DNA of 64,000 nt. Origin: Prorocentrum cordatum. Taxonomy: Eukaryota > Sar > Dinophyceae > Prorocentrales > Prorocentraceae. The translations under genes were made by a program, and so were the position numbers. The stretch lies in assembly GCA_963575745.1 (NCBI GenBank), contig CAUYUJ010000664.1:46885-110884 (forward strand), given 5' to 3'. Below, one piece after another: positions 17,738 through 49,419 of this stretch (its first letter is position 1; each line of letters begins with the position of its first letter). The notes under the pieces were generated by a model. It had not been told where the DNA came from. It made no database searches and was given only the letters and a program-made list of their open reading frames with translations.

Positions 17738-17757
17738 CCTCGCACCTTCCTGTGGTG

Positions 17758-21266: not shown

Positions 21267-21269
21267 AGA

Positions 21270-25153: not shown

Positions 25154-25166
25154 CTTGAGCCAAAAT
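25154..25166 (-). other. Spliced-leader relic (13 nt)
   Basis: The minus strand reads ATTTTGGCTCAAG, a perfect match to the last 13 bases of the dinoflagellate spliced leader. The reading frame of the gene copy at 22676-25153 follows immediately (LVAPLELAHSAQ). The position at the head of a coding frame makes a chance match unlikely. Confidence 0.75.
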
Positions 25167-25169
25167 TTG

Positions 25170-26678: not shown

Positions 26679-26699
26679 CGATGAAGTAAACAATAGAAA

Positions 26700-27311: not shown

Positions 27312-27344
<33 letters not shown>

Positions 27345-27460
27345 CGCTCCTCAAGCTGCAGAACACTGAATGCGACTTGGCCCAAAGTTGTCTCCTGTTT
27401 TTTGGCAGCACTCCCAACGCGAGCGCAAACATTGACCAGAGCATTGGCTCCAGCTGATGC
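26700..27460. other. No gene; low complexity
   Basis: GAG/GGA-rich (26780-26990), then TCCTCAT-type repeats (27195-27310) and a C run at 27315-27343. ORFs here are compositional. Confidence 0.6.
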
Positions 27461-27464
27461 CAAA

Positions 27465-27730
27465 TGGTATGGAACGACTGATGCTGGCAGCCTAGTGATA
27501 TGAAGCGACTGCAGCTGGCAGCCTAAAGATGGAGAGCAGGCAGCCTATCAATGTGAAGCGAGTGCTGTTGGCAAGCACCGTGAGGATCTGAAACGAGTGC
27601 CGTTGGCAAGCACCCGCATGATATGAAACGCTGGTGGCACGGCAAGCGCCACCAATATATGACACGAGTGCTGCAGGCAAGCGCACGCCGATATGAAACG
27701 AATCCTGCAGGCAAGCACTCTATGAACACG
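27465..27730. repeat. About 45-bp tandem repeat
   Basis: Six or so units with the pattern GATATGAAACGAGTGCTG(C)NGGCAAGCACN run head to tail, first with GGCAGCCT then with GGCAAGCA endings. A second short repeat (GGTGCAAACGAGCT, ACTGGACTG) follows at 27740-27880. Confidence 0.7.
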
Positions 27731-27889
27731 CTGCGTTGCTAAAATGCGATGGCTAGCTAGGCTCTGGTGCAAACGAGCTACACTGGACTGGTGCAAACGA
27801 GCTGCAATGGACTGTCGCAAACGATGCGATGGCTAACCTGCCATCTGGCGCGAACGGGCTTCACTGGACTGCGCTGCTATGAATGCAAC

Positions 27890-28449
27890 GTCACGGGCGA
27901 ACCTGACTCAGACGAGCTCGACGCATCCGCCCCCTCATGACGGCGTGGTCGGACATCCTCTGGTGCTGGCTCTGGATCGGCGGTGGATGCTGGAGCTGCT
28001 GCATTTGCTGGGGTTGGTGGCCGCACAGCCAGCAATTCTTCCACGTCGCCAAACGCTCAGAATTCAGCGCGTGCTTCTGGTGGGCGCGGTTTCACCGCCC
28101 TCCATGTTCCGCACACTCTGTTCATTTTGCCAGGTTGTTCGGCTTTGTGTTTCACGACGGACGTTCCCACTTTGGGCAGCATCGCGCGCCCCTTTGCGTT
28201 GAGCTCTGTCATGAACACTGTTCCCAAAGCCTGGAGCATCGCAACTGCCGCGACGAAGTCGGCATCTGTTACCTCCGAAACCTTGCGCGCGAGCTCGTGG
28301 GGCAGGAGAACTTGGTCGGAGCTCATGCGGTATACGTGCGCTTCTGTCTTGCCGTGCAAGCTCTTCCTAGTCCTCGGCATTCCCGTGGATGGAGACACTT
28401 CCAGCTCCGACTGGGCAAATGCTCGAGCCAGAACTGCTACAAAGCAAGG
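27890..28449 (-). pseudogene. Coding fragment with in-frame TGA, unknown family
   Basis: One frame is open from about 28449 to 27890 apart from a TGA at 28057-28059. Text before the stop: VAVLARAFAQSELEVSPSTG, HGKTEAHVYRMSSDQVLLPH, VSEVTDADFVAAVAMLQALG and MLPKVGTSVVKHKAEQPGKM. After it: FGDVEELLAVRPPTPANAAA and an acidic Ser-rich end. A TGA just upstream (near 28450) may mark an exon start, since TCTCAG precedes it. Family not recognised. Confidence 0.45.
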
Positions 28450-28759
28450 TCACTGAGACCCATCCCTTGGGCGACTAGGCTCCTGGGCGCGCCTCCTTGG
28501 GCCCCCGTGGGCCCTCGATGTGATGCTGAGCGGTTCCCTGCTGGCATGCTATCCTCAGCTGGCTATTCTACACTGCGCGTGCAAAGGAACGGGGCCACCG
28601 CCTGTGGCTACTATTTGTTGACTAGCCTGTGTTGTGCGCGAAATGAAACGCGCATATAGCCTAGGAGTTGCTAGTAACACGCGTTAGTGTACATTGCACA
28701 GTTACGAGTTAACACGGCGACAATCGCACTGGAAGCGCCGACAACAGCGCCGCGAAGTG

Positions 28760-28782
28760 CCCCCCCCCCCCCCCCCCCCCCC

Positions 28783-28813
<31 letters not shown>
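28760..28813. repeat. C homopolymer tract
   Basis: Nearly pure C over more than 50 bp with a single A; length is probably unreliable. Confidence 0.8.
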
Positions 28814-28979
28814 TTTCCCCCAAAAAACAAGATAACAAAGTGTTCGATGTCATTTTCAGGTTGCGCGAAACACTCATGTAAACGCTGGGTGCGTCTTTCG
28901 AGCGCATGCCTGCTGAAGCTCGCGCGCGCGAGCTTCCGTAGCGCATGTGCGTTTTGCATGCAGCGCCGCAAAGTTAAAT

Positions 28980-29203
28980 CGAACAACGAATTCAGAAAAC
29001 GCAATGTAAAACTTTTTTTTCTGTGTCAAAGGGGCAATCACGTAACTATATTACAAGCTCAACGTCATGCATCTCGCGCGAGCGGGTTTCATTTGTGCGG
29101 GCGTTTTCTTGCGCGGACAAATTCCTCCAGTTAGTTGGGGAAAAGAAAAAAAACGAATTGCGAAAACCCCATGTAAAATTGCAGTCTCGGTGCGCAATAG
29201 GCG

Positions 29204-29262
<59 letters not shown>

Positions 29263-30850
29263 ACTGGTGTATCAAGAAACAGAAAGCCTGCATTTAGCGC
29301 GCGCAAGTTTAATGTCTGTTTTTTTGCGCACGCGACGTCGCGACGTTAACTAGAAAGAGGCATTGCGAAAACCCAGGGTGCCATGCCATTCCTTAGATGC
29401 CAAAGGGCTCATATCATTTTTGCGTACCTACAAATGCATGCAAAAACAAGTTCGCGCGCGTTTGCGTGATGCGTGCGCGCTTTGTACACAGTGCAATGTT
29501 AAATGGAAAAAAACGATTCACGAAAGCCAACTGTAAAAATGTCATCATCTGCGGATGCAATGAGCAACTACAGGAACGCAGAATGAACGGGCAACGACAG
29601 CAAACTGAAGGCTCCGCGTTCGCCGCTTTAGATCATTTACGCGCGCACTTTCGCATGCACCACCGCGGACTTTAAATTGAAAAGCGAGTCGCGAAAACCC
29701 ATGGTTAAATTATGTCATGCGGATGCAACCGAAGATCACGTGAACGTTGGCGGCGCGCGTGACCTTGAGTTCGCGCGCGTTTCCCCTTCATTCAGCGTTC
29801 ATGTGGGTGCCCATTGCAGCGAGAGAAAGAAAGTTTACACCGGGCGTTCTCGATTTATTTCGACGTTGCATCGAAGCGTTGCAAGCTGAACGGGCATGAA
29901 CTCCGCAAGCGCGCGAGCTGTAGTTTGTATGCGTTTTACGTATGTTACAATGGTATGGCCCCCTTTTGCATTCAGATGGGGAAATTATACATTTGGTTTT
30001 CGCAATGCGTTCTTCAGGGTAATTCGGCGCGCTGCGTGCAGGACTGGATACGCAAATCAACTTTGCTCGCGCGATAAGCAGATTGAATGGTTTGTGCGAA
30101 TTAACCATCGTTGTAACCGTGCCTCTTGCAAAGCGAGATTGAAAGTTTACATTGGGCGTTCGCCATTCGTGTTTCGATTTAACTTAAAGAGTTCCGTCTG
30201 TTTTAAACAAACGCGCAAAGATGTAGCTGGCGCTCGCGAGAGACCTGATTTGCAACGCAGCAGTAGGTCAAAGAGTTGCTCATTTCACCTAGAGACAAGA
30301 CGTTTTACATTGCGGTTTCGAAATTCGTTGTTCGATTTACTTGCGCAGCACTCAATGCGAAGCGCGCGCGCGCCACGCAAGCTCGCGCGCTCGAGGGTTT
30401 GAGCCCGCGTGCGATTGCGAAGGCAAAGTTGGCGCGATCGCCTCTTGCGCCCATGGATTATATACTTTTGGTTCTCACTTGCTATTGAATTAAATTTCGC
30501 GGCGCGGTCTGCGAACCGCCCGCGCGCCACTTGCGCTCGCGCGCACAAAGTCGAGCCCGCGCGCTTTCACGCAGCCGACGCTCTGGCGCCAGCATCTCGC
30601 ACCCAGAGACAGATGTTAACACTGGACTGCCACAGTGCGCTTGTCAGTTTGATTTCGCACCGAGGCATGCGAAAACGCATGCAACATTGATGAATGTCGC
30701 AAGCGCGACCGCAAGTTTGCGTCAAGGCCATGGCCATGCCCGCGCACGTGCCAGTCTTCGCGTGCACGCGCGCCCGCCTTTCCCAATGACGCCCGCACTC
30801 AGAGAATGAAAGTTCACACTTGTGTTTCGCGGTTTGGTTTTTCGAATTAA
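28980..30850. repeat. Satellite array in head-to-head inverted orientation
   Basis: Units with a core like ACGAATTGCGAAAACCC then ATGTAAAA recur near 28985, 29150, 29355, 29510 and 29685. From about 29830 the same core appears reverse-complemented (TTTACATTGGG, TTTCGCAATTCGTT, CGATTTAACTT) near 29830, 29985, 30140, 30300, 30465 and 30810. Spacing is about 155-205 bp. Between cores lie CG-dinucleotide runs (CGCGCG). No coding potential is supported. Confidence 0.65.
29207..29260. repeat. (AT)27 microsatellite
   Basis: Uninterrupted AT dinucleotide repeat of 54 bp inside the inverted satellite array. Confidence 0.95.
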
Positions 30851-31487
30851 CTTCGCGGCGCCGCACTCGACCGCGGGGGGCGCCCCCCTCCCCCCGCCCC
30901 GCCCCGGGCCCCGCAAGCCCGCGCGCGCGAGCGCGCGCGCGCTGCGCGCCGCGCGCGTTTGCCCAAATTCGCAACCGACGCGGCATCCGCTGTGCGAGAG
31001 CGATAGATATGGCCATCGGATGTTCCAGTTGGAATGCCGATCCAGGATCGCTCAGGTTCGCATGAGGCCGCGCGCGACTGGCGCGGTGCGCGCGCCCATG
31101 CACGCGCGGATGCGCTGCGCGTAGTGCGCGACGCGCGGCGCGCCGAAGCTGCGGCGCGCCGCGCAAACCCTGGCGAGTTCGCAACGTCATCGGCAATCGC
31201 AGCGTGCAAGCTAATTATTTGCCTGCAACGCTGCGACGCGGCGACCATTTCGTGCGGGCCATGGCGATGGCGCGCGGGCGCGGAGTAACGCGCGCGCCAC
31301 GCTGGTTACGCGCAGCAATTCACGCGCGCGCCGCGCGCATGCATGAACATGACGACCCAGTACGACCAGCATGGCGTGGCATTGCTGTCGTTTGCGCATG
31401 CAGTGCCCCGCCCGCACGCAACACCATGCAAGCTTGTTGTGGAAGTGTTGCTTTTCATTGCTTATGTCGGTTGATGAAGTTTATGCG

Positions 31488-31650
31488 AACCTCTGTGGCT
31501 TATGCTTAGTTTATGCTTAGTTTATGCTTAGTTTATGCTTAGTTTATGTGAACCCCGTGGTTTATGCTTAGTTTATGCTTAGTTTATGCTTAGTTTGTGC
31601 GAACTCCCTTTGGTTTATGCTTAGTTTATGCTTAGTGTATGCTTAGTTTA
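31488..31650. repeat. 11-bp tandem repeat TTTATGCTTAG
   Basis: About ten copies of TTTATGCTTAG, interrupted by TTTATGTGAACCCCGTGG, TTTGTGCGAACTCCC and TTTATGCGAACCTCC variants. At 31849-31885 the reverse complement of the interrupting form (GGTTCACATAAACCACC) occurs, so the flank has an inverted counterpart. Confidence 0.85.
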
Positions 31651-33700
31651 TGCGAACCTCCTGGGCGGCTTGCCAGACAGCCCAGCGCAGGGCCGATGGT
31701 AAGGTGCAAGGGTACCCAAGCTGGCGCAAGGGAACTCAAGGCTCGCCACCATTTCTATCGGAATCCTCACAAAGATACTCAACCCGCCCTGGGGGCATGG
31801 CGCATGGATACTCCCAGGCCATCCGTCGAGGCTGCAAACGGCCGAGGTTCACATACACCACAGAGGTTCACATAAACCACCGAATTCACATACCCCGCCC
31901 ACAAAGATGGCGCATGACACGCGCTTGCAACCGCGTGCGCACTGCGGCCACGTGCGCATCGTCGCCGCGGCCGCCGTCGCCGCCCGCGCCGCCGCCAGTT
32001 GGCGTTTGCGCCGCGCCGTCTAGCCAGCTTCCAAGCCATGGAACTCGCGGGTGTCAGATGAGCGACAGTGCGGGGTTTTGTCGCCCTGCGCATAAGGCGC
32101 CCACCCCTCCTCACGCGCGCGCAGTCGGCCCTGCATGGCCCACTGGCAGCTCTCTTCTCCTTGCACAGCGTGCCAATTGTGGACGGGGTCCCTGCGCCGA
32201 AATGAGGTTTCAGGATGCCAAATCTCACTTACGGGGCACGCAATCCCGCCTCGTGCCCGCTCACGCACCTGCGAGAATCGGGGAGATTGGTTCTCCCAGG
32301 GAGGGACGTGGCGCACAGGGTTTAAACTTGCTTGCGCATGCCGCAGCAGATGCTACGATGCCAACGTCGGTTCATTGGACGCCGGCTGGATGGCATGGTC
32401 GCTGGCGGCGGGTGCACCGCCATGACGGGCGGTACCATCGGCGGGCGTGGCACGAGGCGCTGCTGGCCCATGCGTCCGTTGAGAGCCCAGCAGCGCGTCG
32501 GCTGAGTTGTTTTCGCGTCAGGTGCGTTGGCGGGAAGTTGTGCGCGCGCGCGCGTGCGTGCGCGTGCGAGGTGGAAAGAGTGGGGGGAGGGGGGGGGGGA
32601 GCATCGGTCGCCGCGGCATGTCAGGCGTCCAGCAGTCGAAGCCGCCAACGGCACCGCAAATTCGATGGGCCCGCGGGGTCGCTGGCGACCAATGGCGCCG
32701 CCTGGCCGAGCCCAGCCGCCGCGGCGGTTGCGGGGGGGGCGGCGCGCGCGGCGATCGGGGCGGCGCTTGGTGTTGCGCCAATCGCCTTGCTAGGGCATTG
32801 GCTGCGGCGACAGCGGCGATCGCTTAGCCACGGCGTTGACTTGATTGTTGGCATGAGGAGGGCTGACACGCGCGGCTGGTTGCCTTCCAGGTCAATGATC
32901 ATTTCCGCGGGCAAGCTCGCACGATTGGACCAGCGCGCTGAATGCGCGCGCGGGGCTCTGCGTTCGCGGAGCATTCGACCGCCCTCAACGCTGGCACCCG
33001 TGGCAAGTTTAAACCAAATGCAATGCTTCGTTTGGCTTCGACGCTGGCATGCACGCGCGCTCTACCAGTTGGTTGCGCGACGCGCGCTTCGCGCGCACGT
33101 GCGCGCGGCGGAGGGGGGGGGGCGGGGGGGATGCGCTGCGTGACCAGCCATGCACGTCTCGCCGCGTTGCCCGCGCACCTCCACCCCCTATCCCCCGTGC
33201 CCGCCCCGCTGTCGGTGGTCAATCGCTGCTGGGGCTCGCATGGCTACGCACTGTGTCCGTCGGCTGCGTTAGCACGCGGCACGCGCGCGCGCGGGGAGAG
33301 TGGCGGCGGCGCGCGGAGAACCACTGCGGGCAACCAAGCCAGCAGGGTCCGCGGGGCGGTCGGCCCGCGCGCCGCCCTTGGGCACTTGCCAGGCCGCCCG
33401 CTCCGCTGCGCGCAGTGCAAGCGAGCCCGCCGAGTTCAGCGTTACTTGGCAGATCGCGCGGGACGTGGCAAGCGCGCAGCGCGCGTCAACATTAGTAAGT
33501 CCGCGATGGGTTCTTAACAGGGCGGGTTCCATCCGAAGTCGGCGAATAATCGCGCCACCCATAGCCGCGCGACACGGACAGCGCAAACCCATGGGCGCGA
33601 CAACAAGCGTCGGCGCGCGGCAACCAGAGGCCAAATTCACGCGCGCCGCGTTGACGACAGCGCGTGTTGCGAGCTGAATCCCTTACTCGGCGAGCCCGAT
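31651..33700. other. No gene accepted; CpG-rich DNA
   Basis: Very CG-rich with many CGCGCG runs. A 497-codon plus-strand frame (31650-33143) exists, but its Ala/Arg/Gly bias and lack of domain motifs, together with long frames on the opposite strand, make it a composition artefact. Confidence 0.5.
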
Positions 33701-33789
33701 GTCCATTGCGGCTGCGCGCCGCTGATAAGCTTTGACGCACGGGGGCGCAGCTTCAAAACTCTATGGGGGCGCGGCTCCAAAACCCAAAT

Positions 33790-35440
33790 GCTGAACAGTC
33801 TCTGATCGGAAGGCGGAATCGTCCCAGCGTGTGCGTAGCATGTACGAAAGGCATAATGCGAAGCGCCAGCGCGCGCGAGCGCGCGCGCGCGCCAATGCGC
33901 GCGCGTCGGCGTTTTGTGTTGTCCGCGATAGAAAAGTCGACGCGTCCCTCGGCCTCCTTAAAGGGCCACAGAAATTTTGAATTCAGTTTTTAGAATTACA
34001 GGTCGATCTTTCTAGGATGCGCAATACAGAAGTCCTCAACGCGCGCGAACGCGCGCGCGGCAATTGCGCTCCGCTGGTAAGTGTGTTTCCGCGGAACGAT
34101 GTGACATTCCAAAACCAAATGGCGAAAACCCAGTTGCATAAATCCATTCGCTGGCTGGAAGACGGGGTCACCCCCACGTGGGCATATGATAAGAATACAC
34201 CGTGCGAAGAACCAACGCGCGCGCGTGCGCGCGCGTAGCGCGCGCATCGGCGTTCTGCATCGTCCACCTTAGAAATGTCGACGCGCCCGTCGACCTTTGT
34301 AAAGAACACCAGGAATTTGTGAATTCAGTTTTTGGGGTTACATCTAGTTTTTTTTTCTGTTGTTGAGAACGCAGAACCCGTCAACGCGCGCGCGTATATG
34401 CGCGCGCGGTTGCTGCGCGCCGCTGGATGCATGGGAGCAGCGTTAAATTCACAAACCCAATGTGATAATCCATTCTCTGGTCGGACGACGGGACCATCCC
34501 AATGTAGCTATTGCATACGAAAGGTATAATGCGAAGCGCCAGCCAGCGCGCGCGCGCGCGCATCGGCGCTCTGTGTAGTCCACAGTAGACAAATTGATGC
34601 GCCCGTCGGCCTCCTTAAAGAGCCCCAGGAATTTTCGAATTCAGTTTCTGAAATTACATGTCGGCTTTTTTGCAGCCTTGACAAAATGAATTCTTCAACG
34701 CGCGCGCCGCTGATGAGGTTAACGCATGCCATCTGTGTTAAACTCCCAAACCAAATTGCAAAACACAAAGTGGAAATTCATTCTCTGGTCGGGACACGGG
34801 GTAACCCCAGCGCGTGTAATTCATGCGGAACAAAAAAAAATGCGAAGCGCCAAAACGCCAGCGCCAACGCGCGCGCGCGCGTACACGCGCGCATCGGCGC
34901 TCTGTATCGCCAACCATAAAAATATCGACGCATCCTTCGGCCTCCTTACAGAGCCACAGGAATTTTCGAATTCAGTTTCTGGAATTACATGTCGGCGTTT
35001 CTATGGGGAACAATACAAAACTCTTCAACGCGCGCGCGCGCGCACGCGCGCGCGCGCGACGGCTGCGCCACGCTGGTCGGCTGAACAAGGGATCGATTTC
35101 TGATATACAGATAGCAAATTATGAACATGCAGAATGCAAAACTAAACATCATTGTTTGATTGGAGACGGGACCATTCCGATGTGCGTGTGTGTATCAGAT
35201 ACGAAATACATCGTGCGTAGCGCTAGCCAAACGCGCGCTAACGCGCGCATCGGCATTCCCTTTGCCCACGCTGGAAAGGTTGACGCGCCCGTCGGCTTCT
35301 TACACGGCCACAGAAAGTTGAGTTCAATATTTAGAATGCGTGTCGGTTTTTGTATTGTAGGCGATACAGAACTCCTCAGCGCGTGCGCGCGCGTACGCGC
35401 GCGCGCACGCGGCGGCTGCGCGACGGTGTTAGGTGGCGAC
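33790..35440. repeat. About 335-bp tandem satellite with CG-run blocks
   Basis: Five units are visible. The landmark GAATTCAGTTT(T/C)TGnAATTACA occurs at about 33979, 34321, 34637, 34968 and (as GAGTTCAAT) 35320, i.e. steps of 342, 316, 331 and 352 bp. Each unit also has CTCCTTAnAGnGCCACAGGAA before it, CTCnTCAACGCGCGCG after it, CAnTCnCTGGTCGGAnGACG mid-unit and GCGAAGCGCCAGCGCGCG near its end. Confidence 0.85.
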
Positions 35441-37000
35441 GGTTACGCCTGGTTATACTACTGCTACGGTGGCTATACACACTAGTACATGCACGGCAAC
35501 TTCTACTAATACTACTGGGGGCCCCTTGCGTTTCATCGTGATCATATGGCTGTCGCTACTGATAGTATTAGTATGAGTGTTGGTACGGTAACACCTGCAA
35601 ATAATAGTACGAGTCTTACGATAACGGCATCAAGGGCTACTACTCCACTTACTTCTATTCCTATTACGTCTACGCCTACTACTACGACGACTTCTGCTAC
35701 TACGTCTACGGCGGCGGCGCTTACCATTATAACGTATACCGCTAAAAAGCGAATCGTGGTGTTATGGATGTCCTTCCTACGACGGTTGCTGCTACTATTG
35801 CAGATGCTACACAAAGACTGGGGATACTACTACCTACTGTTGCTACGTTGGCATCGTGATGATGGGGCTGCCCCCAATGGTGTGACATCGCAGGCTTGCG
35901 TAGCATAGATAAACATAGCAACGTATAGCGTAGTTAGCGATAGCGTTGCGTTGCGTAGCTAGCGGTCAGGCGGCTGGGCTTGGCACGGTAACTGGAGCTG
36001 GCGCTAGCATTCTTAACCGTGGAGTTGGCGTTGATTGAAACGCTTACGCTTGGCGTTGGCCTTGTTGGAGCTGTCGCTGGCACGGGAATGCTGTCGCTGG
36101 CACGGAGCTGTTGTCGCAGGCATTTTGGCGCGAAAGCGCACGCATATCAATTTAGTTTGCATTGGCAGACCGGCGCTGGCACTGTTAATGCTGACGCTGG
36201 CACGGTGGTACTTGCGCTGGCACTGTAATGATATCGGTGACATGTTGGCGATGTCGTTGGCACGGTGACGTTGGCGTCATCATGTTTTGTCTGGCGTTGG
36301 CACAGTTGATGTTGATGTTGGCACGGTGTTGCTTGCGCTTGCGATGTCCGATGTGGCGCCGCTAAGCCGCCGAGATCGGTAACAAAGATGGCGCGTGCGC
36401 CGCTGGCATTGGCACTGCTGGCACTGGCGCGGCAATGCTATCGCTGGCACGGCAGCGCTGCTGCTGGCACGGTAATGATGGTGTTGGTGCGGCAATGTTG
36501 TCGTAGGCGCGGTCATGTTGTCGCTGGCACGGTAATGCTGTCGCTGGCACGGTGATGTTGGCGCTTGCATTGCTCTCGCTGACACGGTGCATCCGCGGCG
36601 CATGGGGCGAGACGTTGGCTTTGGCACGGGGTAAACTTTCTGGGTCCAGAAGGGGGAACAGAGGCGAGTTGCGAAGCCATGCGAGGTTCCAAGCATATCG
36701 CCTGTTGCCCTTATGGAACGGCGTTGAAACGGGGTTAGTTGATCAGAGGTCGGCCCGACGAGGGAGCTCTTGAGGCCACCTTGGGGGGGGGGGGGGTGAA
36801 TATACAATGTTAGAGCCCAAGGGTCATGCAGCCCAGAGCGCACCAGAGCCCCACTGATGGTTGTGATCGCCCTGGATGTTGGCGATGCTGATGTTGGTGA
36901 CTATCGCGCCGATGGGAATGAACATGGCGATGGTTTCGATGCCGTGAATGCGTTGCTGATGTTTGCGCGGCAATCACTTTTCACTTTTTTTATTGCATTG
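35441..37000. repeat. CTGGCACGGT minisatellite and flanks
   Basis: From about 35990 to 36600 degenerate units of GCTGGCACGGTAATGCTGTC recur every 20-40 bp. The part before (35440-35880) is ACT/TAC-rich. A run of G stands at 36784-36796. No gene seen. An A-rich stretch (AATAAAAAAAGTGAAAAG on the minus strand, about 36977-36995) lies just after the end of the gene at 37008 and may be a poly(A) remnant. Confidence 0.6.
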
Positions 37001-37007
37001 CGTGCTA

Positions 37008-37970
37008 TTATCCAACATCCACTCTGGCGTACGCGTCCACCTCTGCTGGGGTGGGTTTCCTGTGACCCGCTTTATCTGCGGACTCCCACGCCAGGCGCAA
37101 CCACGCGCCAAGATAATACTGCGCTGCACGGGGGCCATATCGATCTGCGCCCAAACGAATAGAGCGAAACAGCCTGCAGTTGCCATGGCCGACGTTACAA
37201 CAGTGCACGCGAACGCCAATTGCGTCCACACCAGATGGTAACTTATGCGTCTCTCTGGTGACCCGCTGGCCTTCGATGAAATGTGCGATTGCGTCCACGC
37301 CAGCAAGCGCAACTTCATCTCCCACGGGCGCTGGACCTGGAGCAGGGAGGGGCGCTGGAGGTGGAACAGCACCGTCGTCTCCAACGACGTCGTCGTCAGC
37401 GATGCCATCGCAGACGACGCCTCCAGCATCGGGCGGAATGGGATCCTCCGCCACTTCATCGACGATACCTTCAATGGGCACGAGTTCACCGTCGTCGCCG
37501 ACAACGTCATCAAAAACAGCTGGCACTTCGATTTTCGTTTTTTTTGCCGGCCTGTCAACAATTGCTGCAACCTCAGGGTCCCCGTCTCCTTCCAAAGCTT
37601 TGAGAATGGCAAGGTGCTTGGCTGCTCTCTCACCTGGCACTGCTTTGGTCGGGTCCTTCAAAAGCAATTGAAAAAATGAAGCTGGCTCCGACGATCTGAA
37701 TGGCTGGGCACCCTTGGCAAACAGTGCCTCCAGCGACAGAAGGACTAACAGATAATGCTTCCTACCAACATTCATTTTGCGTGAATCGTACGTCCCAGCC
37801 CCATCGAACCCCTCGTAAAGAACAACTTCCGAGCACGATGTCCATCCAAGTGTCTCAAGACAGTCCAAAATGCACAGTGTAGGCCAGTTCATCTTGGAAC
37901 CAGAAGGCGCTGCAATCTGAGGCTCACATAACTCCAAACAGCCATCAGCATCACTTGGAGCTGGCTTCAA
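37008..37970 (-). CDS. C-terminal part of multi-part dinoflagellate gene
   Basis: This 320-codon frame continues the preceding one (ends 37951) after a shift at an A8 run (about 37972-37979). It starts in KPAPSDADGCLELCEPQIAA, continues SKMNWPTLCILDCLETLGWT, GRKHYLLVLLSLEALFAKGA, a nuclear-type basic motif (RPAKKTKIEV), then an acidic low-complexity zone with repeated VVGDDG blocks and a final globular part (VDAIAHFIEGQRVTRETHKL, RYGPRAAQYYLGAWLRLAWE). The VVGD motif also occurs at the N-terminus of the first part (MSDDDVVGDAAP). Family not named; I recall similar multi-copy proteins in other dinoflagellates but cannot verify it here. Confidence 0.55.
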   Translation of the reverse strand: MKPAPSDADGCLELCEPQIAAPSGSKMNWPTLCILDCLETLGWTSCSEVVLYEGFDGAGTYDSRKMNVGRKHYLLVLLSLEALFAKGAQPFRSSEPASFFQLLLKDPTKAVPGERAAKHLAILKALEGDGDPEVAAIVDRPAKKTKIEVPAVFDDVVGDDGELVPIEGIVDEVAEDPIPPDAGGVVCDGIADDDVVGDDGAVPPPAPLPAPGPAPVGDEVALAGVDAIAHFIEGQRVTRETHKLPSGVDAIGVRVHCCNVGHGNCRLFRSIRLGADRYGPRAAQYYLGAWLRLAWESADKAGHRKPTPAEVDAYARVDVG

Positions 37971-39625
37971 TTTTTTTTAAACTTTGTCTACTCTCAATCG
38001 ACACATCCATGAACTCAAAAAAATCGAATGGCCCAGGACCTTCGACGGGATACGCGTGAACAGCATCACCATCCAGCCCTTGCCAAAGCCATCTTTCAAA
38101 AAACTGCACATTCACAGTGAATGACTCAGTGTCACTGACATTCTGATTCACAGTCTGCATAAGTTTCGCGCGGACCTTCAAGCTCAAGACCTGCATGTAC
38201 ACGCATGGCGGCCCATCATCATCGCCCCCACGGCATGCCAATGAATAGTAGCCGTACGGCACGAGAACTTTAGAGAGGAAATCCCCCAGAAGGCCCGCCT
38301 CTCCGACTGCAAACCCTTCGGCTTGTTTTTTTTTCTTCGACTGTGGGTTCCGCGGAGGCTCACGATTGCCGCCGCCACTGCCGCCTCCCTGATCTGGCTC
38401 GTCATCACCAGGGCCGTCTGGCCCATCATCATGGTCCAGGTCGTCTGGCCCGTCGTCGGCGCCCCCTGCGCTCGGCCCTGCACCGCCGTCGCCACCGCCA
38501 CCGTCGCCAGGAGCGCCTGCGGAAACTGCCATGCCATACCGCATGGAGCTCAAGTGCGTGGCAGTGTAGGTCCTGGCAACAGCTTTGGACCTTGCCAAGC
38601 GTGAAGGTGCCATATTTGTAAGAGACGCCCTCGGTGGCTGCAGTACTGACTTCGCATCGGTCCAGTTCCTGTCGAGATCCGCACCTAGCGCACTACAGAA
38701 ACCACGCACGTCCTCAAGATTGTTCTCGAGCCTCATGGAACTGGCGATCCAAGGAGAGGTGCCTCGCCGAGCTCGCAAGTGGTGGTGTCTAGCAGCTGCA
38801 TGGGGCCCCTCAGCAACAGTGTCGTCCAAAGGCGCATGAAGAATGGAATCGATTTCAGCCTCCAGTTCTGGGCTGATGTTCCCCCAATGCTCGTCGATGC
38901 GATCCACGGCAGCACGCATTCTCGACCCTGGCCTCATCACAGCAAGAGTCACCGAATCGTGACAATAGTGCGGGTGCCGATTATACAGCTCGTTGCATCT
39001 TGATTTGATGCCAGGCTCACGCAACCTGCCCAAGATGTATGGCAGATCGTTCAAAAACTGGTTTTTCAAAGAACCAAGCGCGAACGTACTCCTCACCATT
39101 CCCCGGGCCTGGTGCAACAGCTGAGGATCGGGGCCGAACATGCCCTCCCCAAGCATTTGCCTCAGCCAGCCCCGCCCTCAATCTCGACATGCCGCACTCG
39201 AAAGCATATCCAAGCACGCAGCCAGATCGATCACATTGGATGGCCTCACCAGAATCCCAAAGATGGCGGTGGTAAGGACAGTACCCAGCGAAACGTCTCA
39301 AATCATTCAGCCACGCATTGAACCACATCATAAACTTGAAATGGAAAGGAAACGCTGGACAACTCAAGGACGCAAGAACTGAATTCAAACGGACTGGGTC
39401 TCGAATCTCACCAAATGCATCTGTGGTGATGTGGCCTTTCACAGACCAAATGAACTTGTCCAAACACGCCAGAACACGATACAACTTCTGCCACCGCCAC
39501 TCCGCAAAACTCGGCACCGTGGTCACGGTACTCACCAGAGCAGCTAAGCCAGGCAACCCAGTGGCTCTCCAGTGGGTCTCTAAAGTATGCCACACTCCCT
39601 GGGGTGTGCACATTTCCAAATGCAC
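37951..39625 (-). pseudogene. Middle part of multi-part dinoflagellate gene, one frameshift
   Basis: Two overlapping frames: 39625 to about 39145, then about 39150 to 37951, with the shift in CTTGGGGAGGG. Part one: TVPSFAEWRWQKLYRVLACL, FPFHFKFMMWFNAWLNDLRR, then GYCPYHRHLWDSGEAIQCDR and SGCVLGYAFECGM, a Cys/His cluster that could bind zinc. Part two: LNDLPYILGRLREPGIKSRC, HPHYCHDSVTLAVMRPGSRM, a Gly/Asp-rich disordered region, SKKKKQAEG, and a globular end (TESFTVNVQFFERWLWQGLD). It follows the DDE-like part in the same orientation and precedes the C-terminal part with no gap. Confidence 0.55.
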
Positions 39626-40140
39626 GCGCGCACGATGATGTGTATATCCATCCTCCTACCTCCTACCTCCTACTCCCTCTTCTCGTTCCCTGCCTCCTAC
39701 TTCTACGTTGTACCCCCCGCGTCCCCTCCCAGGTGGGTATATCGTTCTGGCCTCAGAGAACATCAGAGGATTCTTGACGTACAGTTTTTGGCACGTCGGA
39801 GGTATTTCTTTTCAGGCCTACATCCTACCTCCCACATCGTACATGATATCTCTCTATGTTTCTTCATGCATCGTTCATCGTCGGATGGAAGCCACACTGA
39901 ATGTTTACTTGAGGCCTTCGGTCAATTCCCCGCCGTGCCACGAACCGTGTGGGGGTGCGCCGAAGCCAGCCTAATACCTCTCACCTCGCGTTTCCTGCCA
40001 CTTACCCCCTGCCCGCCACTTCGCAGGTTCCTCTGGCCCCCCCAGTTGTTCACGGGGATGGTGGGGGGGCAAGGGTAGGACGAAGTAGGAGACACGAGGT
40101 GCGAGGCATGATGGGGGAGTTGGGAATTGGAAGGCGGCGC
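39626..40140. other. Non-coding insertion interrupting the gene
   Basis: Between the N-terminal part (protein-like until about 40140) and the middle part (from 39625), some 500 bp lacks coding character and is rich in TCCTACCTCC-type pyrimidine runs. It could be an intron kept or gained after retroposition, or an inserted short element. Its ends carry loosely inverted TCCTACTTC/GTAGGAGG runs, not good enough to call terminal repeats. Confidence 0.4.
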
Positions 40141-41654
40141 GCATTTGAGTACACGCGAGCCTCGTCTCTGAAAAGCGAGGCCAACGACTTGACCCTGTCA
40201 AGAAAGCGTGGGAACCACGCGAGACTATTGCAGCCGTGCCTGATGAGATTGTCGATCTTGCGCCTCCAACCAGGAACGACAAGGGCACGCGGCAACAATA
40301 ACGGCTGTCGGGGAACAGAACACGTCGTGCCAAGACAACGATAAAAATCTGGCAGGCAGTCGTTAATTTTTGCGACCATGTATTCTGTTCCCATATCGGA
40401 AACCACACCACGAACGCGAACAAGACCGTGTCGCATGACAGCGGCATTCCCGCCGAACACCAAGTGGATCTGCCATAACAGAGCGGCAGTCTTGGCAAAT
40501 GCCGACAATTGAGTTCTCATCAACAGAACGGGGGGAAATCTCCTGGACAAGAACTCTCGGCCGTTCAAGCGAACACGATACGAGGCAGCTTGCATTTCCC
40601 AGCCTCTGCCCTGTGGGCTGGAATCAATATAAAGGTATATGTCAACATTCTGCCGGTTAACAGTGGGGAGAAGCTGTTTGGTAAGGCGCATCGCAGCCCA
40701 ATCGCATCTTATCCTTGCTATCCGTAAGGTTTCGCATCGCAACACCCGCAACTCGCGCCGCAATGCAATGCGGTCAAACTTCCCACTGTCTGCAAACAAC
40801 TTACTCCACGCAGACGCACCTTTCCCAGCGTGCCTGAGCGACCTCATAGTACAGCTGGCATCCAACCACGCCAACACGAGAGGGCTGTCGACGCAGTTGC
40901 GCCGTCTAACTGGAACAGCGGCTTGCGCAGGAGCTGCTGGCGTGGGCACCAGTTCCGAGTGCAGCTGGCGAAACCGTTTCAAGCAAGGGGCACGCGGCCC
41001 GAAGTTCAAGGTCTGCGTGAAGCGTTGCCGCAAGACATCACAAGAAAAAAGACATGGCACCAGATCCACGAGGCCAACAGCCAATGTTGGACATACAACA
41101 ACAGGGCCATGTGTGTTGATACGACCGCATTCTCGAGTGACGAGGTCCAACAATTCGTCCCAGTCCGCTTGCAAAACGAAACCATCCAACGATGTGTACG
41201 TGCAGGGTTTACCTTGCAAATGGGCCAACACCGCGTGGTGATTCACAGCATCAGGCGCAATCGCCTGAGCTTCAACCAACTGCATGGCTTTCACAGCTTT
41301 GTGAACGAGCACGCCGTGGCAAGGCCTGCCTCGAAGCGAACCCAGCGCTGATTGCAATATCAGCTGGTTGAGATCTCCAGGGAGGCGTTCAGCATCCCGC
41401 AGGGGGATCAATTCCCAGTGGCCCACAACAACACCAAACAACCAATGCTGCCCGTCCTCAAAGCGAGCACCCTCGGCGGCTGCAAACTGGGATGCCCAGC
41501 CTCCCCCGCGCACGCCGAACACGAAGTAGAGCCTCTCGGGCCCGCAGAACTCGTGAGTTCGCACGTGCCGCCGCCCAGCCGTTCCAACGGCTGTCTCGCC
41601 CGCGGCCGCGTCTCCCGCAGGAGCGGCATCGCCGACGACGTCGTCGTCGCTCAT
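40050..41654 (-). CDS. N-terminal part of multi-part gene, possible DDE-like domain
   Basis: The frame opens at 41765, but the upstream codons are leader relics, so I choose the ATG at 41652-41654 (MSDDDVVGDAAPAGDAA). Text is protein-like to about 40140: RLYFVFGVRGGGWASQFAAA, LRGRPCHGVLVHKAVKAMQL, WDELLDLVTRECGRINTHGP, FRQLHSELVPTPAAP, DSPLVLAWLDASCTMRSLRH. About residue 340 stands VDIYLYIDSSPQGRGWEMQA and about residue 415 VRGVVSDMGTEYMVAKINDC. SD.GTE after an upstream Asp resembles the catalytic spacing of DDE transposases/integrases (RNase H fold); this is a suggestion, not a demonstrated match. Spliced-leader relics at its head indicate a retroposed mRNA copy. Confidence 0.6.
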   Translation of the reverse strand: MSDDDVVGDAAPAGDAAAGETAVGTAGRRHVRTHEFCGPERLYFVFGVRGGGWASQFAAAEGARFEDGQHWLFGVVVGHWELIPLRDAERLPGDLNQLILQSALGSLRGRPCHGVLVHKAVKAMQLVEAQAIAPDAVNHHAVLAHLQGKPCTYTSLDGFVLQADWDELLDLVTRECGRINTHGPVVVCPTLAVGLVDLVPCLFSCDVLRQRFTQTLNFGPRAPCLKRFRQLHSELVPTPAAPAQAAVPVRRRNCVDSPLVLAWLDASCTMRSLRHAGKGASAWSKLFADSGKFDRIALRRELRVLRCETLRIARIRCDWAAMRLTKQLLPTVNRQNVDIYLYIDSSPQGRGWEMQAASYRVRLNGREFLSRRFPPVLLMRTQLSAFAKTAALLWQIHLVFGGNAAVMRHGLVRVRGVVSDMGTEYMVAKINDCLPDFYRCLGTTCSVPRQPLLLPRALVVPGWRRKIDNLIRHGCNSLAWFPRFLDRVKSLASLFRDEARVYSNARRLPIPNSPIMPRTSCLLLRPTLAPPPSP

Positions 41655-41691
41655 GTCCGCTGCGAAAATGCCACGACACAAGCGAAACGAG

Positions 41692-41729
41692 TTTGGGCCA
41701 AAACAGGTTTGAGCCGGAATGGTTACGGA
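41692..41729 (-). other. Tandem spliced-leader relics
   Basis: The minus strand of 41710-41729 reads CCGTAACCATTCCGGCTCAA, 17 of 20 positions identical to the dinoflagellate spliced leader (three transitions). Directly after it, 41692-41703 reads TTTTGGCCCAAA, a truncated second copy with two changes. The first ATG of the following gene (41654) lies 38 bp after the second relic. Confidence 0.8.
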
Positions 41730-41765
41730 AGAGCAGCAGAGCAGGAGTGTAAGCACCCCGAGCAA

Positions 41766-42397
41766 TTATCTCGATTGGGGGTCAGAAACTGACGGCAGTT
41801 CAGGATGAATGGGGCCCTCGCGACCCCTTAACGGGCCTGGCTTTCAAAACAAGGGCAATGATCCCGAGCAGTGGCCTGAGCTTTTCGCTTGAAACGTCCA
41901 TCCATGGTGTAACTTGTCGCATTACGATATACTACGTTTGCACGGATGGGCGGCAGCAACGTTTCAAAACATCCGTTGTCGTCTTGAGACATCTCTGCAA
42001 TAACTCACAGTGTCGTCTTGAGACATCCCCGCAAGTTGATTCGACCACCGTGCCTTGCGGGCGTAGCGAAGACAACCAACCGCTGAAGCTAAGAAAAGGA
42101 TGACGAGAATGAGGAAGTTTAAGAGGAGGAGAGCGAGGGGGGGCATAGGGGGGGAGGGGGACGAGGAGGAGGACGAAGAGGAGTAGGAGGAGGACGGGAA
42201 TGAGTTTTTTTCGGGAGCGCGCATGCGTTCTCATCAAACGCAACTGGTCCAAGAACGAGAAGGAATGCGAAATCGCATTCCTTCTCGTTGTTACACTGCT
42301 TTCTACAACTGAGGGCGTAATGTAAAAAAGTCGTCGATGCTCTGTGCGCGAAGTGTAAAAATCGTAAGTTAAGGGAACTATTTCCGTCTTATGCTTA
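41766..42397. other. No gene; short repeats and a hairpin
   Basis: Contains a direct repeat GTCGTCTTGAGACATC at about 41979 and 42013, a GAG-rich tract at 42110-42200 and the inverted repeat listed separately. It separates the leader-headed gene from the truncated end of the endonuclease. Confidence 0.6.
42254..42289. repeat. Perfect 17-bp inverted repeat with 2-nt loop
   Basis: AACGAGAAGGAATGCGA is followed after AA by its exact reverse complement TCGCATTCCTTCTCGTT. RNA from either strand would form a strong hairpin. It lies about 110 bp beyond the truncated end of the endonuclease frame. Confidence 0.9.
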
Positions 42398-43618
42398 CTA
42401 CCCCTCGGTTCCCATAAGTTTCAGCCACTGTATGGGGTAGGTTACCTTAGCCTCATTCCATTGACGGGGGAGTACCCTTAACCCTCGGAGAGAGCCTAGC
42501 CAGTCGACAGCTTGTATCAAGTCAGTGAGGTCACCCTCCGGAATGGCATAGGTTTTCTCAAGGTAAGTGTACAACCGACGTAGCTCGGTGTGGGCCTCGG
42601 CGGGGGGGCCTCGGAACTCTGCGGGCGTGAGTGTGCGGTCGCGTCTGGCAGGGCGACTGCCGTCGGGATCGAGATGCATGATGGCATGGTCCGACAGGGA
42701 AGGCTTCCACGCCTTCCTGGTATGGTAGGCCGCCAGTGACGCTGTGGGGCATGCCATTCAATCGATGGCGGAGTCGCTGTCGCGGTCGGCGCAAGCGGGC
42801 CCGCCCGCGTGTGCAATGCTTGAGTTGGTGGAGGCAAGGAGGTCACAAAGGTTTGCCACGTCCTCGACCTCTCCCTCGCGTGGGTCTTCGCACTGCAGGT
42901 TGACGCCTCCCCCCCAGAAGGTCGGGACATCGTCGAGCCTTTCAAGTGCCTCGCGGGCCCCTTGTATGGTTTCACTCTTGAGTGACGGTGGTAAATAAGT
43001 ACTGATGAGCCTGACACGAGTACCTTGCGCATCGATGTCTGCCCATATAGCGCATCCTGGGACAAGTGTGCCAGAGGCGAGCAGGGGCATTCCATGAGGC
43101 ATCAAGATGGCCGTTCCTCCTGCGAGGCCGCCCCCTGGCCCCCTGAAAGCTGGCGTGGAGGCAAGGGCACGCGCTGGCAAGAGGCTAGCCCAGACGCCAC
43201 TTTCGTGTTCAGACCAGTGAGTCTCTTGTAGAAAGCAGGCGCGTTCCCTGGTGGTGACTTCTGTCAGGACAGCATGTTTAATTCGGTTTTTGTGCGCAGT
43301 GGTGCTTCGTGGGTATCGAACGCTCCAGCATGCCAGGCGTGGTTTCCCGGTGCCGCGAGCTCTCTGCAGACCTGCAAGAAGGTCGTCGAGTTTGAAATCG
43401 GCGTAGAGGTCACGCCAGGTGGGGTTCTGCCACTGAGAGCCGCGGAGCGCGGCCCAGAGGGCGCGTGGCGAGCGTACCGGGGCAGCATGGTGAGCGAGGA
43501 GGTGAGAAGAAAGAGATCGTGCCGCAGTTTTCCAGACGCGACTGCGGGCAGCCGGCGCCAGCGCTGCCCCGTCGGGGGGCCCCAGGGCCTCCCGTTGTGG
43601 GAGGGGGGCCCAAGTTGA
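42398..43618 (-). pseudogene. AP-type (EEP) endonuclease of a LINE-like element, truncated
   Basis: One minus-strand frame, continuous with the methyltransferase frame, holds the conserved blocks of the exonuclease-endonuclease-phosphatase fold used by LINEs to nick target DNA. Blocks: RERACFLQETHW (catalytic Glu), GGGLAGGTAILMPHG, VRLISTYLPPS, VPTFWGGGVNLQ (GGDFN position; the Asp is Gly here), DSDSAID followed by TGA where Trp is expected (stop at 42758) and MACP, and WKPSLSDHAIMH (the SDH box). After the domain the frame continues EFRGPPAEAHTELRRLYTYL to GLRVLPRQWN and ends at 42398 without any RT. The missing Asp and the TGA argue for an inactive copy. Upstream the frame reads WRDLYADFKLDDLLAGLQRA and PRLACWSVRYPRS. 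Confidence 0.85.
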
Positions 43619-45237
43619 TTAGGGGGGGATTACCGTCGGTGGGCAGAGAGGTGGAATGACGTTCCCAGCCTCACAGGAAAGTCGTATATCATCTGGAAAG
43701 GGTGATCTGGCAAGCCGATCGACCCTGCAGTGCTGTTTGGCAAATGCGAATGCATGGTCAAAGCCCGCCTGGATGTCGAGTGCGCACGGCGTTCGGCGAT
43801 CTCCGTAGACTCCTGGCACTGTTGCAAGGCATGCGTCCATCAGGAGCCCAACGATCCTTTGCTGGAGGGATCGGGGACCAAAGTGATTGCCAACGGCGTC
43901 GTACAGTTCTCGGCTGGCGAGTCCCATCGCGCCGTAGTAGTCCAGCATCCAGGTGGCTCGCGCGCATTCTTCGGGCGCTGGTACTCGAAGCCCGTGTTTT
44001 CAACCCTCTTGCATGAGCCATCGTCTCCAGGATCTTACTTGTTCCTCTTCCTGTTGTCCATCTCTCCCCTTCCCACTGAGAACGTGCTTCAGGCCTTCTT
44101 CGCATTATTTGTGCGTGGCGCTGGCGTTGGTCTCTCGTAGGATGCGTTGCACCCTTTTGCTCACTTCGGTGAGCCGGACGCAAAGCCATGGTTGGCTGCA
44201 GTTGAAATGGCACAGCAGATGTTTGGGATGCAGCTGGAAGCATCTTGCTAGCACCTCGTTGGGGCCCCCACGAGACCTGGTCCACGCCGGCACTGCACCT
44301 TCAAAGTGGAAGGACCATTCGTTGCCCCAGGGGGGGGGAAGCCCCGGGAAATCAAGGTCGAGGTCAGACCTAGGGAAGGAGCCTAACCATAGCCTGTCTC
44401 GCGGGCTGACCACCCATTTTCCGGCGTCGATTTCGACGACCCAGTCATCTGGGACCTCCCCCATGGCTCTCTGCATGCCTTCCCGGTGAGGTTTGCGCAT
44501 GGAGCCCGCGTTTTCAACGACCACATGTATTGTGACGTCGTTGCGGTAGCATGTGGCGAGGGACCACGCCAGGGGAATTGCGAAAAAGTGGACCGACTTG
44601 TCCCCGACGAGGCCGTCCTGGCCGCCTCGAGACCCTGCGCATGACAGATTGTTGCATGGGCTGCCCCCAACGATCAGGAGGAGGGCGTCGGGCTCAAGGG
44701 AGGAGACGACATGTTCCCACACCGTCATCGCAGCACCGGGCGTCCTCCTGAAGAGGTCCCACACGTCCGAGGCGAGGATTCGGTGCGGCGGTCCGCCGTC
44801 CCGTGCCCGTGTCTCAGGGCATTCTCAGAGCTGCGTGGCCCTTTGTGCCATGCAGGTGTCGTGCTCTACGAGGTTGGAGGTGCGGAAGAGATCAGCGCGT
44901 CCCATTCGATGTAGTAGGTCCCCCACTGCGTACCTGGCTGTCCCCCACCCGTCAAACAAAGAGACCAAATGCAGCGGGCGTTCCTGTCGCCCTCCTTGAT
45001 TGGTTAATGAAGCGCTGAGGTCGCCTGTGTTCTTGCCATTGTGGAGAATGGTAGGGTCAGGTCGTCGTTGGAAGTCGCTCGTGGAAGCTTGCGCTGCTGG
45101 CGCTACCTGGCCAGTCACTCGGCCGTCGTGCACCCTGATGTCGCGTGCTACAATGACCCCTTGTCTGGCGAGGTCATGAATGGCATCTACGACCATCTGT
45201 GAATTCAAGCCTGCCTGGGAGCATGCGACAAGCATCG
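43619..45237 (-). pseudogene. DNMT3-like cytosine-5 DNA methyltransferase in a retroelement
   Basis: One frame carries nearly all C5-methyltransferase motifs in order: I LHLVSLFDGWGTARYAV (cofactor binding), II NLVEHDT, III ILASDVWDLF, IV IVGGSPCNNLSCAG with the catalytic Cys, the following GLVGDKSVHFF, VI VVVENAGSM with the catalytic Glu, VIII SPRDRLWLGSF, IX RVPAPEECARATWM and X ELYDAVGNHFGPRSLQ. GGSPCNxLS followed by G..s.hFF is closest to the DNMT3 type. The enzyme would methylate cytosine in DNA using S-adenosylmethionine. Stops at 44825 (TGA), 44105 (TAA), 44000 (TGA) and 43619 (TAA) break it, all without frameshift. N-terminal to motif I is AQAGLNSQMVVDAIHDLARQ. The frame passes straight on into the endonuclease. 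Confidence 0.85.
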
Positions 45238-45334
45238 GGCCCTCGGATGTCGCCGGTGCTATTCCAGCGGTTGGGCCGGCGTGTCTCGACCAGGCGCACT
45301 GGAGCAGATCGCTTGGATTCGGGGGAGAGCTGAG

Positions 45335-46403
45335 TTATTCGACGACCTCGTTGGCGGGCCGTTGTCGCTCCGAACGCGCATTTGCTGGCGCCGCTCTGCT
45401 GGCTGGTCGCGCAGCTCCTTTGGCCATCGGAGAAAGCACCGTTTGTACCACACCTGAGGCAAGACGTCGCCCCGCGCCCATCCGCCTCAGTCGGTGTGGC
45501 AGCTGATCTAGCCCGAGCCACCTTGGGGCCCGGGTTGTCCGCGCTGGTGCTTTTGGCGCGGGTGATGGAATCTGATTTGCCGCCCGTCTAGCGGGCGGCT
45601 GACGACGGCCTGGCGGCTGCGCGCCTCTTTTAGGTTGTGGGCCCGCTACAGTGACCGGCGTCTCTGGTTGGGTTGCATCGCGATTGGCGGGGTTGATAAT
45701 GTTCGGTATGAACGTCGCAGCACCGTCGTTTACGGAGGGGGTTGGGGCTGGTTGCGGCAACCTGTCGGTTGGGATGTTCTTGTTGCTGCACGTAGAAGGG
45801 CGTTGCGCGGTGCCCCAGCGTTGAGAGCAGTTTGGCTGACAATCCCCCGCATGGTCGCCCATGTAGTAGTGAGCAGGGCTCGTCTGGCGCGGCGGGGTCG
45901 CAAGGGTTGTTCCGAAGCATGCCGCTGGGACGGTCGATCACCAAATTCGGCCTGGCGCTATGATAATGCGAGTCGCCCCCCGCGCCCCGTCCAGGTAGGC
46001 GAGCTTCGTTCCAATAGCTGACAAGCAAAGTATAACTTTCCTCACTCCGCCGAAACTGCTCGAAAAAAAGCCTCTTGGTTGGTGCGCGGAGTTGGCCGAC
46101 CGTGGTTCCCCAGATGAGGGGTGACATGACAGTCTGCCAGCCCCTTGAGGAGCTAATGCTCTCAACCCTGTCCTTGAACCGTGGGGTCTTAACCTCCTCT
46201 GTAACATGGCCAAGATAACGCTTCGTGTTATTGAGAAGTGCGTTCCACTTGGTGTTGATGGCGCAATGGAGGTTCAATCCTTCTGGAATTCCGCCGGCCC
46301 TGCCGAGTGGGTTTCTCTCGTAATCAATCTCGCCTGCGCCAGGGAGTGACAACAGCTTGTTTCTTCGATCAGTAGCCTGTGTCGCGCGTGCTGACGAGCT
46401 CAC
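45335..46403 (-). pseudogene. Linker and globular segment N-terminal to the methyltransferase
   Basis: From 45862 to 45335 the frame is the methyltransferase one and encodes a Pro/Ala/Arg-rich linker (PTDRLPQPAPTPSVNDG, PNIINPANRDATQPE, RRQPPARRAANQIPS), ending in a TAA at 45335 before the frame carries on. From 46403 to about 45865 the convincing text is in another frame: EIDYERNPLGRAGGIPEGLN, HCAINTKWNALLNNTKRYLG, VESISSSRGWQTVMSPLIWG and RLFFEQFRRSEESYTLLVSY. Thus one indel lies near 45865. No domain is recognised; the globular part may be an ORF1-like nucleic-acid-binding module. Confidence 0.5.
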
Positions 46404-49371: not shown

Positions 49372-49419
49372 TGGTTAGCAGTTCAGCAGTATCGGGGCCT
49401 CCCGGTGAGTTGGGGCCTT

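What the first reader, a model, noticed from the sequence alone, without database searches (positions are those of the whole stretch)
42398..45862. DNMT3-like methyltransferase fused in frame to a LINE endonuclease
Seen: stop positions 45335, 44825, 44105, 44000, 43619, 42758 and 42398 all fall in one reading frame, so 3.4 kb of coding text is continuous apart from isolated stops. It carries C5-methyltransferase motifs I-IV, VI and VIII-X (SLFDG, GGSPCNNLS, VENAGSM, RDRLW, AVGNHFG), then EEP motifs (LQETHW, GGGVN, SDHAIM). Known: C5-methyltransferases have been reported inside dinoflagellate retrotransposons. Inferred: an ancestral polyprotein in which an element brings its own CG methyltransferase to the insertion site, possibly to self-methylate.
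Basis: partly seen in the sequence, partly recalled or inferred. Interest (0 to 1): 0.9.

Follow-up and report, generated by a model that had tools for sequence, protein, structure and literature searches.

The report
Broken LINE carrying a DNA methyltransferase
This is the dead copy of a jumping gene, probably in a dinoflagellate alga, that carried its own DNA-methylating enzyme next to (not fused to) its copying machinery; the kind is already known, but here another large mobile element has cut it in two.

Summary
The features are real; "fused in frame" is not. On the minus strand, 45334-43622 encodes a C5-methyltransferase (25 homologues, best E 2e-104). The stop at 43619 is its natural end: the four best homologues end 79-82 residues after motif X, the window copy 86. 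Six codons on begins the equivalent of an intact relative (P0028, 1791 aa, endonuclease and reverse transcriptase). So the methyltransferase is ORF1, and the endonuclease starts ORF2, of a LINE. The stop at 42398 is not in the LINE: at 42502 starts a 21,639-bp insertion with terminal inverted repeats and an 8-bp target duplication. The rest of ORF2, reverse transcriptase included, resumes in frame at 20855 and runs to about 16.7 kb. The copy is dead: at least 3 premature ORF1 stops, 13 stops in the ORF2 alignments, frameshifts, lost endonuclease and RT residues. The design matches SymbioLINE-Dnmt (de Mendoza 2018), here in a 60% GC, probably non-Symbiodinium dinoflagellate (inferred). Profile and predicted fold are nearest DNMT3, but the PCN motif is confined to one clade of the family. 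Linkage of the two ORFs rests on this locus and the published design; the host genome could not be searched. New member of a known kind.

The parts
43619..45361 (-). ORF1 of the LINE: C5-methyltransferase with an upstream helical stretch (winged-helix-like by eye in the model of a homologue); premature stops at 44825, 44105 and 44000, and one at 45335 eight codons inside the alignable part; natural stop TAA at 43621-43619
   Evidence: 25 homologues, best 42% identity, E 2.2e-104; tblastn extents up to 45361; family columns kept in 90% or more of rows, P226, C227, E274, N275, R314, present; C-terminal length as in the closest homologues
45338..45937 (-). probable N-terminal part of ORF1: Pro/Arg-rich, low similarity; 5' limit of the element not found
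   Evidence: open frame; relatives P0003, P0005 and P0012 have Pro/Arg-rich N-termini (by eye); homologue alignments reach only its last 8 codons
42503..43618 (-). ORF2, 5' part: EEP endonuclease (LQETHW at 43231-43214 and SDH kept; WN->WS and GGDLN->GGGVN changed; stop at 42758)
   Evidence: P0028 residues 4-368, 50% identity, E 2e-86; Exo_endo_phos_2 E 0.022 here, 5e-4 in P0028
42503..42510 (-). target-site duplication CTGTCGAC, ORF1-proximal copy
20864..42502 (-). 21,639-bp inserted DNA-transposon-like element splitting ORF2; imperfect terminal inverted repeats TGGCTAGGC...GCCTAGCCA
   Evidence: end alignment score 68 against a maximum of 27 in 200 shuffles of one end; inner part of the TIR found only at the two ends with up to 3 mismatches, none expected
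20856..20863 (-). target-site duplication CTGTCGAC, distal copy
16674..20855 (-). ORF2, 3' part: linker, reverse transcriptase (YVNDLA for YVDDLA at about 19402-19385) and a C-terminal region that looks like RNase H by eye; 3 or 4 frame changes, 12 stops in the alignments; firm to 16751, the last 29 residues rest on a 24-bit match
   Evidence: P0028 residues 366-1789; RVT_1 in P0028 E 1.4e-6; Pfam finds nothing in the four window pieces themselves at E<=1

Best explanation
A degenerate copy of a two-ORF LINE retrotransposon. ORF1 is a C5-methyltransferase protein with a Pro/Arg-rich N-terminus; ORF2 is an endonuclease-reverse transcriptase. The copy was later split in ORF2 by a 21.6-kb TIR element. 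How intact relatives most likely work (inferred): the ORF2 endonuclease nicks the target, the reverse transcriptase copies the RNA at the nick, and ORF1 travels with the RNA and methylates cytosines, most likely in the newly made DNA, so that a new copy is already methylated as its host genome is. Shown here: the parts, their order, their separation into two ORFs, the decay of this copy, and the later insertion. Not shown: any activity, the substrate, or the benefit.
For: Homologues of the methyltransferase, the four best sharing an ORF end: 79, 82, 82 and 82 residues after motif X in P0003-P0006, 86 in the window. ORF2 relative P0028 aligned from its residue 4 at window 43591, 9 codons after the stop, with no methyltransferase found in it. 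P0028 residues 4-368 and 366-1789 map to 43591-42494 and 20855-16674, same strand, meeting within 3 residues. TSD and TIRs at the break; joining the flanks at the TSD gives one ORF2 alignment of 708 columns across the junction, W-TRPALAG against W-TGPALPG. Published architecture: DNMT in an ORF upstream of an RT ORF (PMC5890265).
Against: No second genomic instance was read: the contigs of P0003 and P0028 could not be fetched, so linkage of this ORF1 type to this ORF2 type rests on the window and on the published architecture. P0028 is the only ORF2 relative found (1 among 5722 candidates), and its PDB matches are weak (R2 protein E 0.059, TRAS1 ORF2p E 0.27). No LINE target duplication or 5'/3' end was found (no shared word of 14 or more between 45400-54000 and 13000-16800). 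No clear CpG depletion: CpG o/e 0.86, 0.88 and 0.92 in the DNMT, EEP and RT pieces and 1.09 in the ORF1 N-terminal piece, against 0.87-0.94 in three flanking stretches and 1.07 in the insert; TpG+CpA o/e is somewhat higher in the first three (1.19-1.26) than in flanks and insert (1.07-1.15). The paper's own yeast assay saw no DNA methylation by SymbioLINE-Dnmt, which its authors call inconclusive.
Confidence: 0.88

Rival explanations
1. One reading: one polyprotein with methyltransferase, endonuclease and (later) RT, broken by isolated stops.
For: ORF1 and ORF2 are in the same frame here, 6 codons apart by P0028's called start.
Against: Shared ORF1 end in the four best homologues; P0028 starts just after it; 3 hits among 3867 candidates of about 1090-3460 aa, none with EEP/RT listed. 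One in three neighbouring ORFs share a frame by chance.
Confidence: 0.05
2. Chance neighbours: a methyltransferase from another element or a host gene next to a LINE fragment.
For: No second linked copy could be read; homologues P0018 and P0029 carry the methyltransferase in larger proteins with other regions, so the domain is not tied to one design.
Against: Same strand, same frame, 9 codons between the ORF1 stop and the first aligned ORF2 residue, and the published ORF1-ORF2 order.
Confidence: 0.06
3. The RT piece at 20.9-16.7 kb belongs to a second, independent LINE copy, not to this one.
For: The two pieces lie 21.6 kb apart; identity to P0028 differs between pieces (39-51%).
Against: They meet within 3 residues of P0028, with TSD, TIRs and frame restored.
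Confidence: 0.02
4. Same element, other role: ORF1 methylates or only binds RNA, or the domain acts as an RNA chaperone, and DNA is never its substrate.
For: ORF1 of LINEs usually binds RNA; the authors of PMC5890265 raise RNA methylation themselves and saw no DNA activity for SymbioLINE-Dnmt in yeast. Two uninterrupted relatives, P0004 and P0005, have EM for the EN of motif VI.
Against: Nearest folds are the DNA enzymes DNMT3A/B; Cys of motif IV and Glu of motif VI kept in 90% or more of the rows.
Confidence: 0.3

Closest known systems
SymbioLINE-Dnmt (de Mendoza et al. 2018, PMC5890265; abstract, sections 6 and 7 and passages of others seen)
   Same: LINE with a DNMT in ORF1 upstream of a separate ORF2 with Exo_endo_phos and RVT_1; some copies carry premature stops
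   Different: Described from Symbiodinium; here a window of 60.3% GC. CpG depletion not clear here.
SymbioDIRS-Dnmt3 and KnitGypsy-Dnmt3 (same paper)
   Same: Retrotransposon-borne C5-methyltransferase, DNMT3 kind
   Different: DNMT inside the Pol polyprotein of DIRS or Gypsy elements; here ORF1 of a LINE
DNMT3A/DNMT3B catalytic domain

Membership tests
SymbioLINE-Dnmt | DNMT in an ORF upstream of a separate ORF with RT | tested here: met
SymbioLINE-Dnmt | EEP endonuclease and RT together in ORF2 | tested here: met
   relative P0028: RVT_1 E 1.4e-6 (28.6 bits, cut-off 29.6), Exo_endo_phos_2 E 5e-4 (20.4 bits, cut-off 27.4), both below the cut-off; window pieces map to it
SymbioLINE-Dnmt | flanking target duplications, conserved UTRs, no poly-A | tested here: inconclusive
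   no shared word of 14 or more found; ends of the LINE unknown
SymbioLINE-Dnmt | DNMT belongs to the published orphan clade | not testable with these tools
   published sequences not at hand; no look-ups in supplements allowed
SymbioLINE-Dnmt | reduced CG content of the element | tested here: inconclusive
   one copy, o/e 0.86-0.92 (1.09 in the N-terminal piece) against flanks 0.87-0.94
DNMT3 family | closest relatives are DNMT3 enzymes | tested here: inconclusive
   best by profile and fold, but no tree with DNMT1/2/3/5/6 references was made
DNMT3 family | motif IV of PCN type across the family (PCN in the DNMT3A and DRM2 chains aligned) | tested here: not met
   PCN in 2 of 22 tree rows plus the partial P0012; the other 20 rows have PCQ (17), PCI, PCT or PCP
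Plant DRM | rearranged order of motifs | tested here: not met
   motifs I, IV, VI, VIII, X in the usual linear order
DNMT-EEP-RT polyprotein | one uninterrupted ORF with both domains | tested here: not met
   genomic copies not examined

The most novel reading that the evidence does not exclude
A broad, old family of element-borne DNMT3-type ORF1 proteins, larger than the published SymbioLINE set, with several companion designs (RING-DNMT in a 2110-aa ORF, long Pro/Arg-rich N-termini), lives in LINEs of dinoflagellates outside Symbiodinium and places methylation at the insertion site; in the clade seen here the in-frame ORF1 stop next to ORF2 may also allow some read-through into a methyltransferase-endonuclease-RT product.
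Probability: 0.2. Interest if true: 0.6.

Novelty: new member of a known kind. Interest (0 to 1): 0.36.

Why it matters
It supports the published two-ORF design against a fusion and, if the host is what its composition suggests, extends methyltransferase-bearing LINEs beyond Symbiodinium, which bears on whether such elements came before or after the unusual dinoflagellate methylome. It also shows how a nested insertion can hide the reverse transcriptase 21.6 kb from its endonuclease.

Tried and rejected
Fusion polyprotein: rejected. Two independent LINE fragments: rejected by TSD, TIRs and restored frame. RING ORF at 50.6-49.4 kb as the 5' end of ORF1: P0029 joins a RING and the methyltransferase, but P0029 gives no tblastn match at E<=1 to the window upstream of 45.0 kb, so left open. 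Identity of the inserted element: the Pfam scans of the ORFs chosen from it gave no match at a cut-off (best Glu2-Pro E 0.005 for one ORF), and one ORF gave no PDB match. LINE target duplication: no shared word of 14 or more. CpG depletion: not clear. Rfam: no match in the window at gathering scores. Scans of viral contigs with P0028 and P0003 and of prokaryote contigs with P0028 found no relative; a scan with A2 brought 62 viral-contig loci of 25-36% identity, which I take to be general C5-methyltransferases of phages and did not read. The fold rows shown are C5-methyltransferases; families not listed there are not excluded.
Full report
Observation. The frame from 45937 to 42503 has 6 stops in 1145 codons; the two other frames of that strand have 24 and 27, and order-1 Markov sequences have a mean of 26.3 and a minimum of 13 in 500. 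Profile libraries give only sub-threshold matches to the window itself: DNA_methylase E 0.09, NCBIfam dcm E 0.08, Exo_endo_phos_2 E 0.022, and nothing for the whole chain. By phmmer against the PDB the methyltransferase part gave DRM2 at E 0.016 over 34 residues; the endonuclease part gave only an unrelated chain at E 2.

Two ORFs, not a fusion. The window stop 43619 lies 86 residues after motif X. In P0003, P0004, P0005 and P0006 the protein ends 79, 82, 82 and 82 residues after it; in the 10 other homologues looked at the tail is 90 to 495 residues. Five members share a tail like AAEHGRRAQ (seen by eye). An endonuclease-region search gave one protein at E<=0.001 among 5722 candidates: P0028, 1791 aa, E 1.4e-79, with RVT_1 (28.6 bits, cut-off 29.6) and Exo_endo_phos_2 (20.4 bits, cut-off 27.4) below their cut-offs; its PDB matches are weak (R2 protein E 0.059, TRAS1 ORF2p E 0.27). 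No methyltransferase was found in it. Its residue 4 aligns with window 43591, so its first residue falls 6 codons after the ORF1 stop. P0028's start is a gene-caller's choice and its DNA was not read. A third search, for methyltransferase-bearing proteins of about 1090-3460 aa, gave 3 hits among 3867 candidates; the only Pfam domain listed is a RING in P0029.

The missing reverse transcriptase. P0028 residues 4-368 map to 43591-42494 and residues 366-1789 to 20855-16674, on the same strand; the match is firm to 16751 and the last 29 residues are a 24-bit piece. At the break the minus strand reads ...CTGTCGAC-TGGCTAGGC... at 42510 and ...GCCTAGCCA-CTGTCGAC... at 20863. The ends of the 21,639-bp stretch between are inverted repeats of 49 and 60 nt (one 11-nt gap), score 68 against a maximum of 27 in 200 shuffles of one end; the inner repeat is found only at these two places, none expected. 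The direct repeat can be read as 8 to 11 nt; 8 fits symmetric TIRs. Joining the flanks at the duplication gives one alignment to P0028 of 708 columns through the junction. So one LINE was split by one TIR insertion, and the stop at 42398 and the last 105 nt of the reported chain belong to the insert.

State of the copy. ORF1 has premature stops at 44825, 44105 and 44000, and one at 45335, where the homology begins to fade; the ORF2 alignments hold 13 stops (1+5+2+3+2+0) in frames -1, -3, -1, -2, -1, -3, some of the five in the second piece falling where its alignment runs past a frameshift. Against P0028 the endonuclease has lost Asn (WNVR to WSVR) and Asp (GGDLN to GGGVN), and the RT YVDD is YVND; LQETHW and SDH remain. 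That these are the catalytic positions is established knowledge of the families, not a result here. The methyltransferase kept its key residues. I draw no conclusion about selection from that, as no DNA of relatives was available. CpG o/e is 0.86, 0.88 and 0.92 in the DNMT, EEP and RT pieces, 1.09 in the ORF1 N-terminal piece, 0.87-0.94 in three flanking stretches and 1.07 in the insert; TpG+CpA o/e is 1.19-1.26 in the first three and 1.07-1.15 in flanks and insert. That is a hint of deamination at most, not a test of self-methylation.

Host. A 21-nt spliced-leader pattern (recalled) has one match with 3 mismatches at 21266-21246, none expected, which points to a dinoflagellate. Window GC is 60.3%. 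Prorocentrum cordatum has 59.7% and three Symbiodinium entries 50.4-51.9% in a published table (passages of PMC11453091; P. cordatum also in passages of PMC10666404). The host is therefore inferred, not shown.

What is known. De Mendoza et al. 2018 (PMC5890265; abstract, sections 6 and 7, passages of others) describe SymbioLINE-Dnmt: a DNMT in an ORF upstream of an RT ORF, an orphan DNMT clade, purifying selection, CG depletion, no activity in yeast for the LINE enzyme (inconclusive by their account), while DIRS enzymes methylate CG. A 2025 paper (passages of PMC12344493) repeats the orphan placement. Four literature searches (20 listed of 238, 5 of 5, 1 of 1, 9 of 9) listed no other paper that I recognised, from title and start of abstract, as describing a LINE with a DNMT in ORF1; the library is not complete. 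The word methyltransferase does not occur in the main text of the P. cordatum genome paper.

Verdict. A real, beyond-chance feature of a known kind, wrongly read as a fusion. New here are the correct ORF boundary, the recovered RT half, the nested insertion, and the likely wider host range. Linkage of this ORF1 type with this ORF2 type rests on this one locus plus the published architecture, because the genome search stayed unanswered in all 14 tries.

Noticed in passing
window 20864-42502 (-): 21.6-kb element with about 50-nt imperfect TIRs and an 8-bp target duplication; its ORF 41765-40050 has no Pfam or PDB match and looks DDE-transposase-like by eye only.
   Followed up: partly
window 49420-50628 (-): ORF with a RING-H2 finger, E 7.8e-5, below the curated cut-off, 4.1 kb upstream of ORF1 on the same strand; the related P0029 joins a RING and the methyltransferase in one 2110-aa protein.
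   Followed up: partly
window 12806-14912 (-): Two pieces of a superfamily 1 helicase, AAA_11 E 3e-17 and AAA_12 E 5.8e-14, in different frames; host gene or another element.
   Followed up: no
window 21246-21266 (-): Relic of a dinoflagellate spliced leader, 3 mismatches of 21, none expected by chance, near one end of the inserted element.
   Followed up: no
homologues P0018 and P0029: Methyltransferase followed by a Cys-containing C-terminal region shared by these two proteins, protease-like by eye; suggests a second ORF design with extra enzymes.
   Followed up: no
homologues P0004 and P0005: Uninterrupted ORFs of the same clade with altered motifs I, IV and VI (SFMDG, SSPCQDM, CEM for VEN): possibly methyltransferases losing activity while the ORF is kept.
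   Followed up: no
window 46680-46823: Two 72-nt tandem copies, 82% identical, in a Pro-rich frame upstream of ORF1.
   Followed up: no
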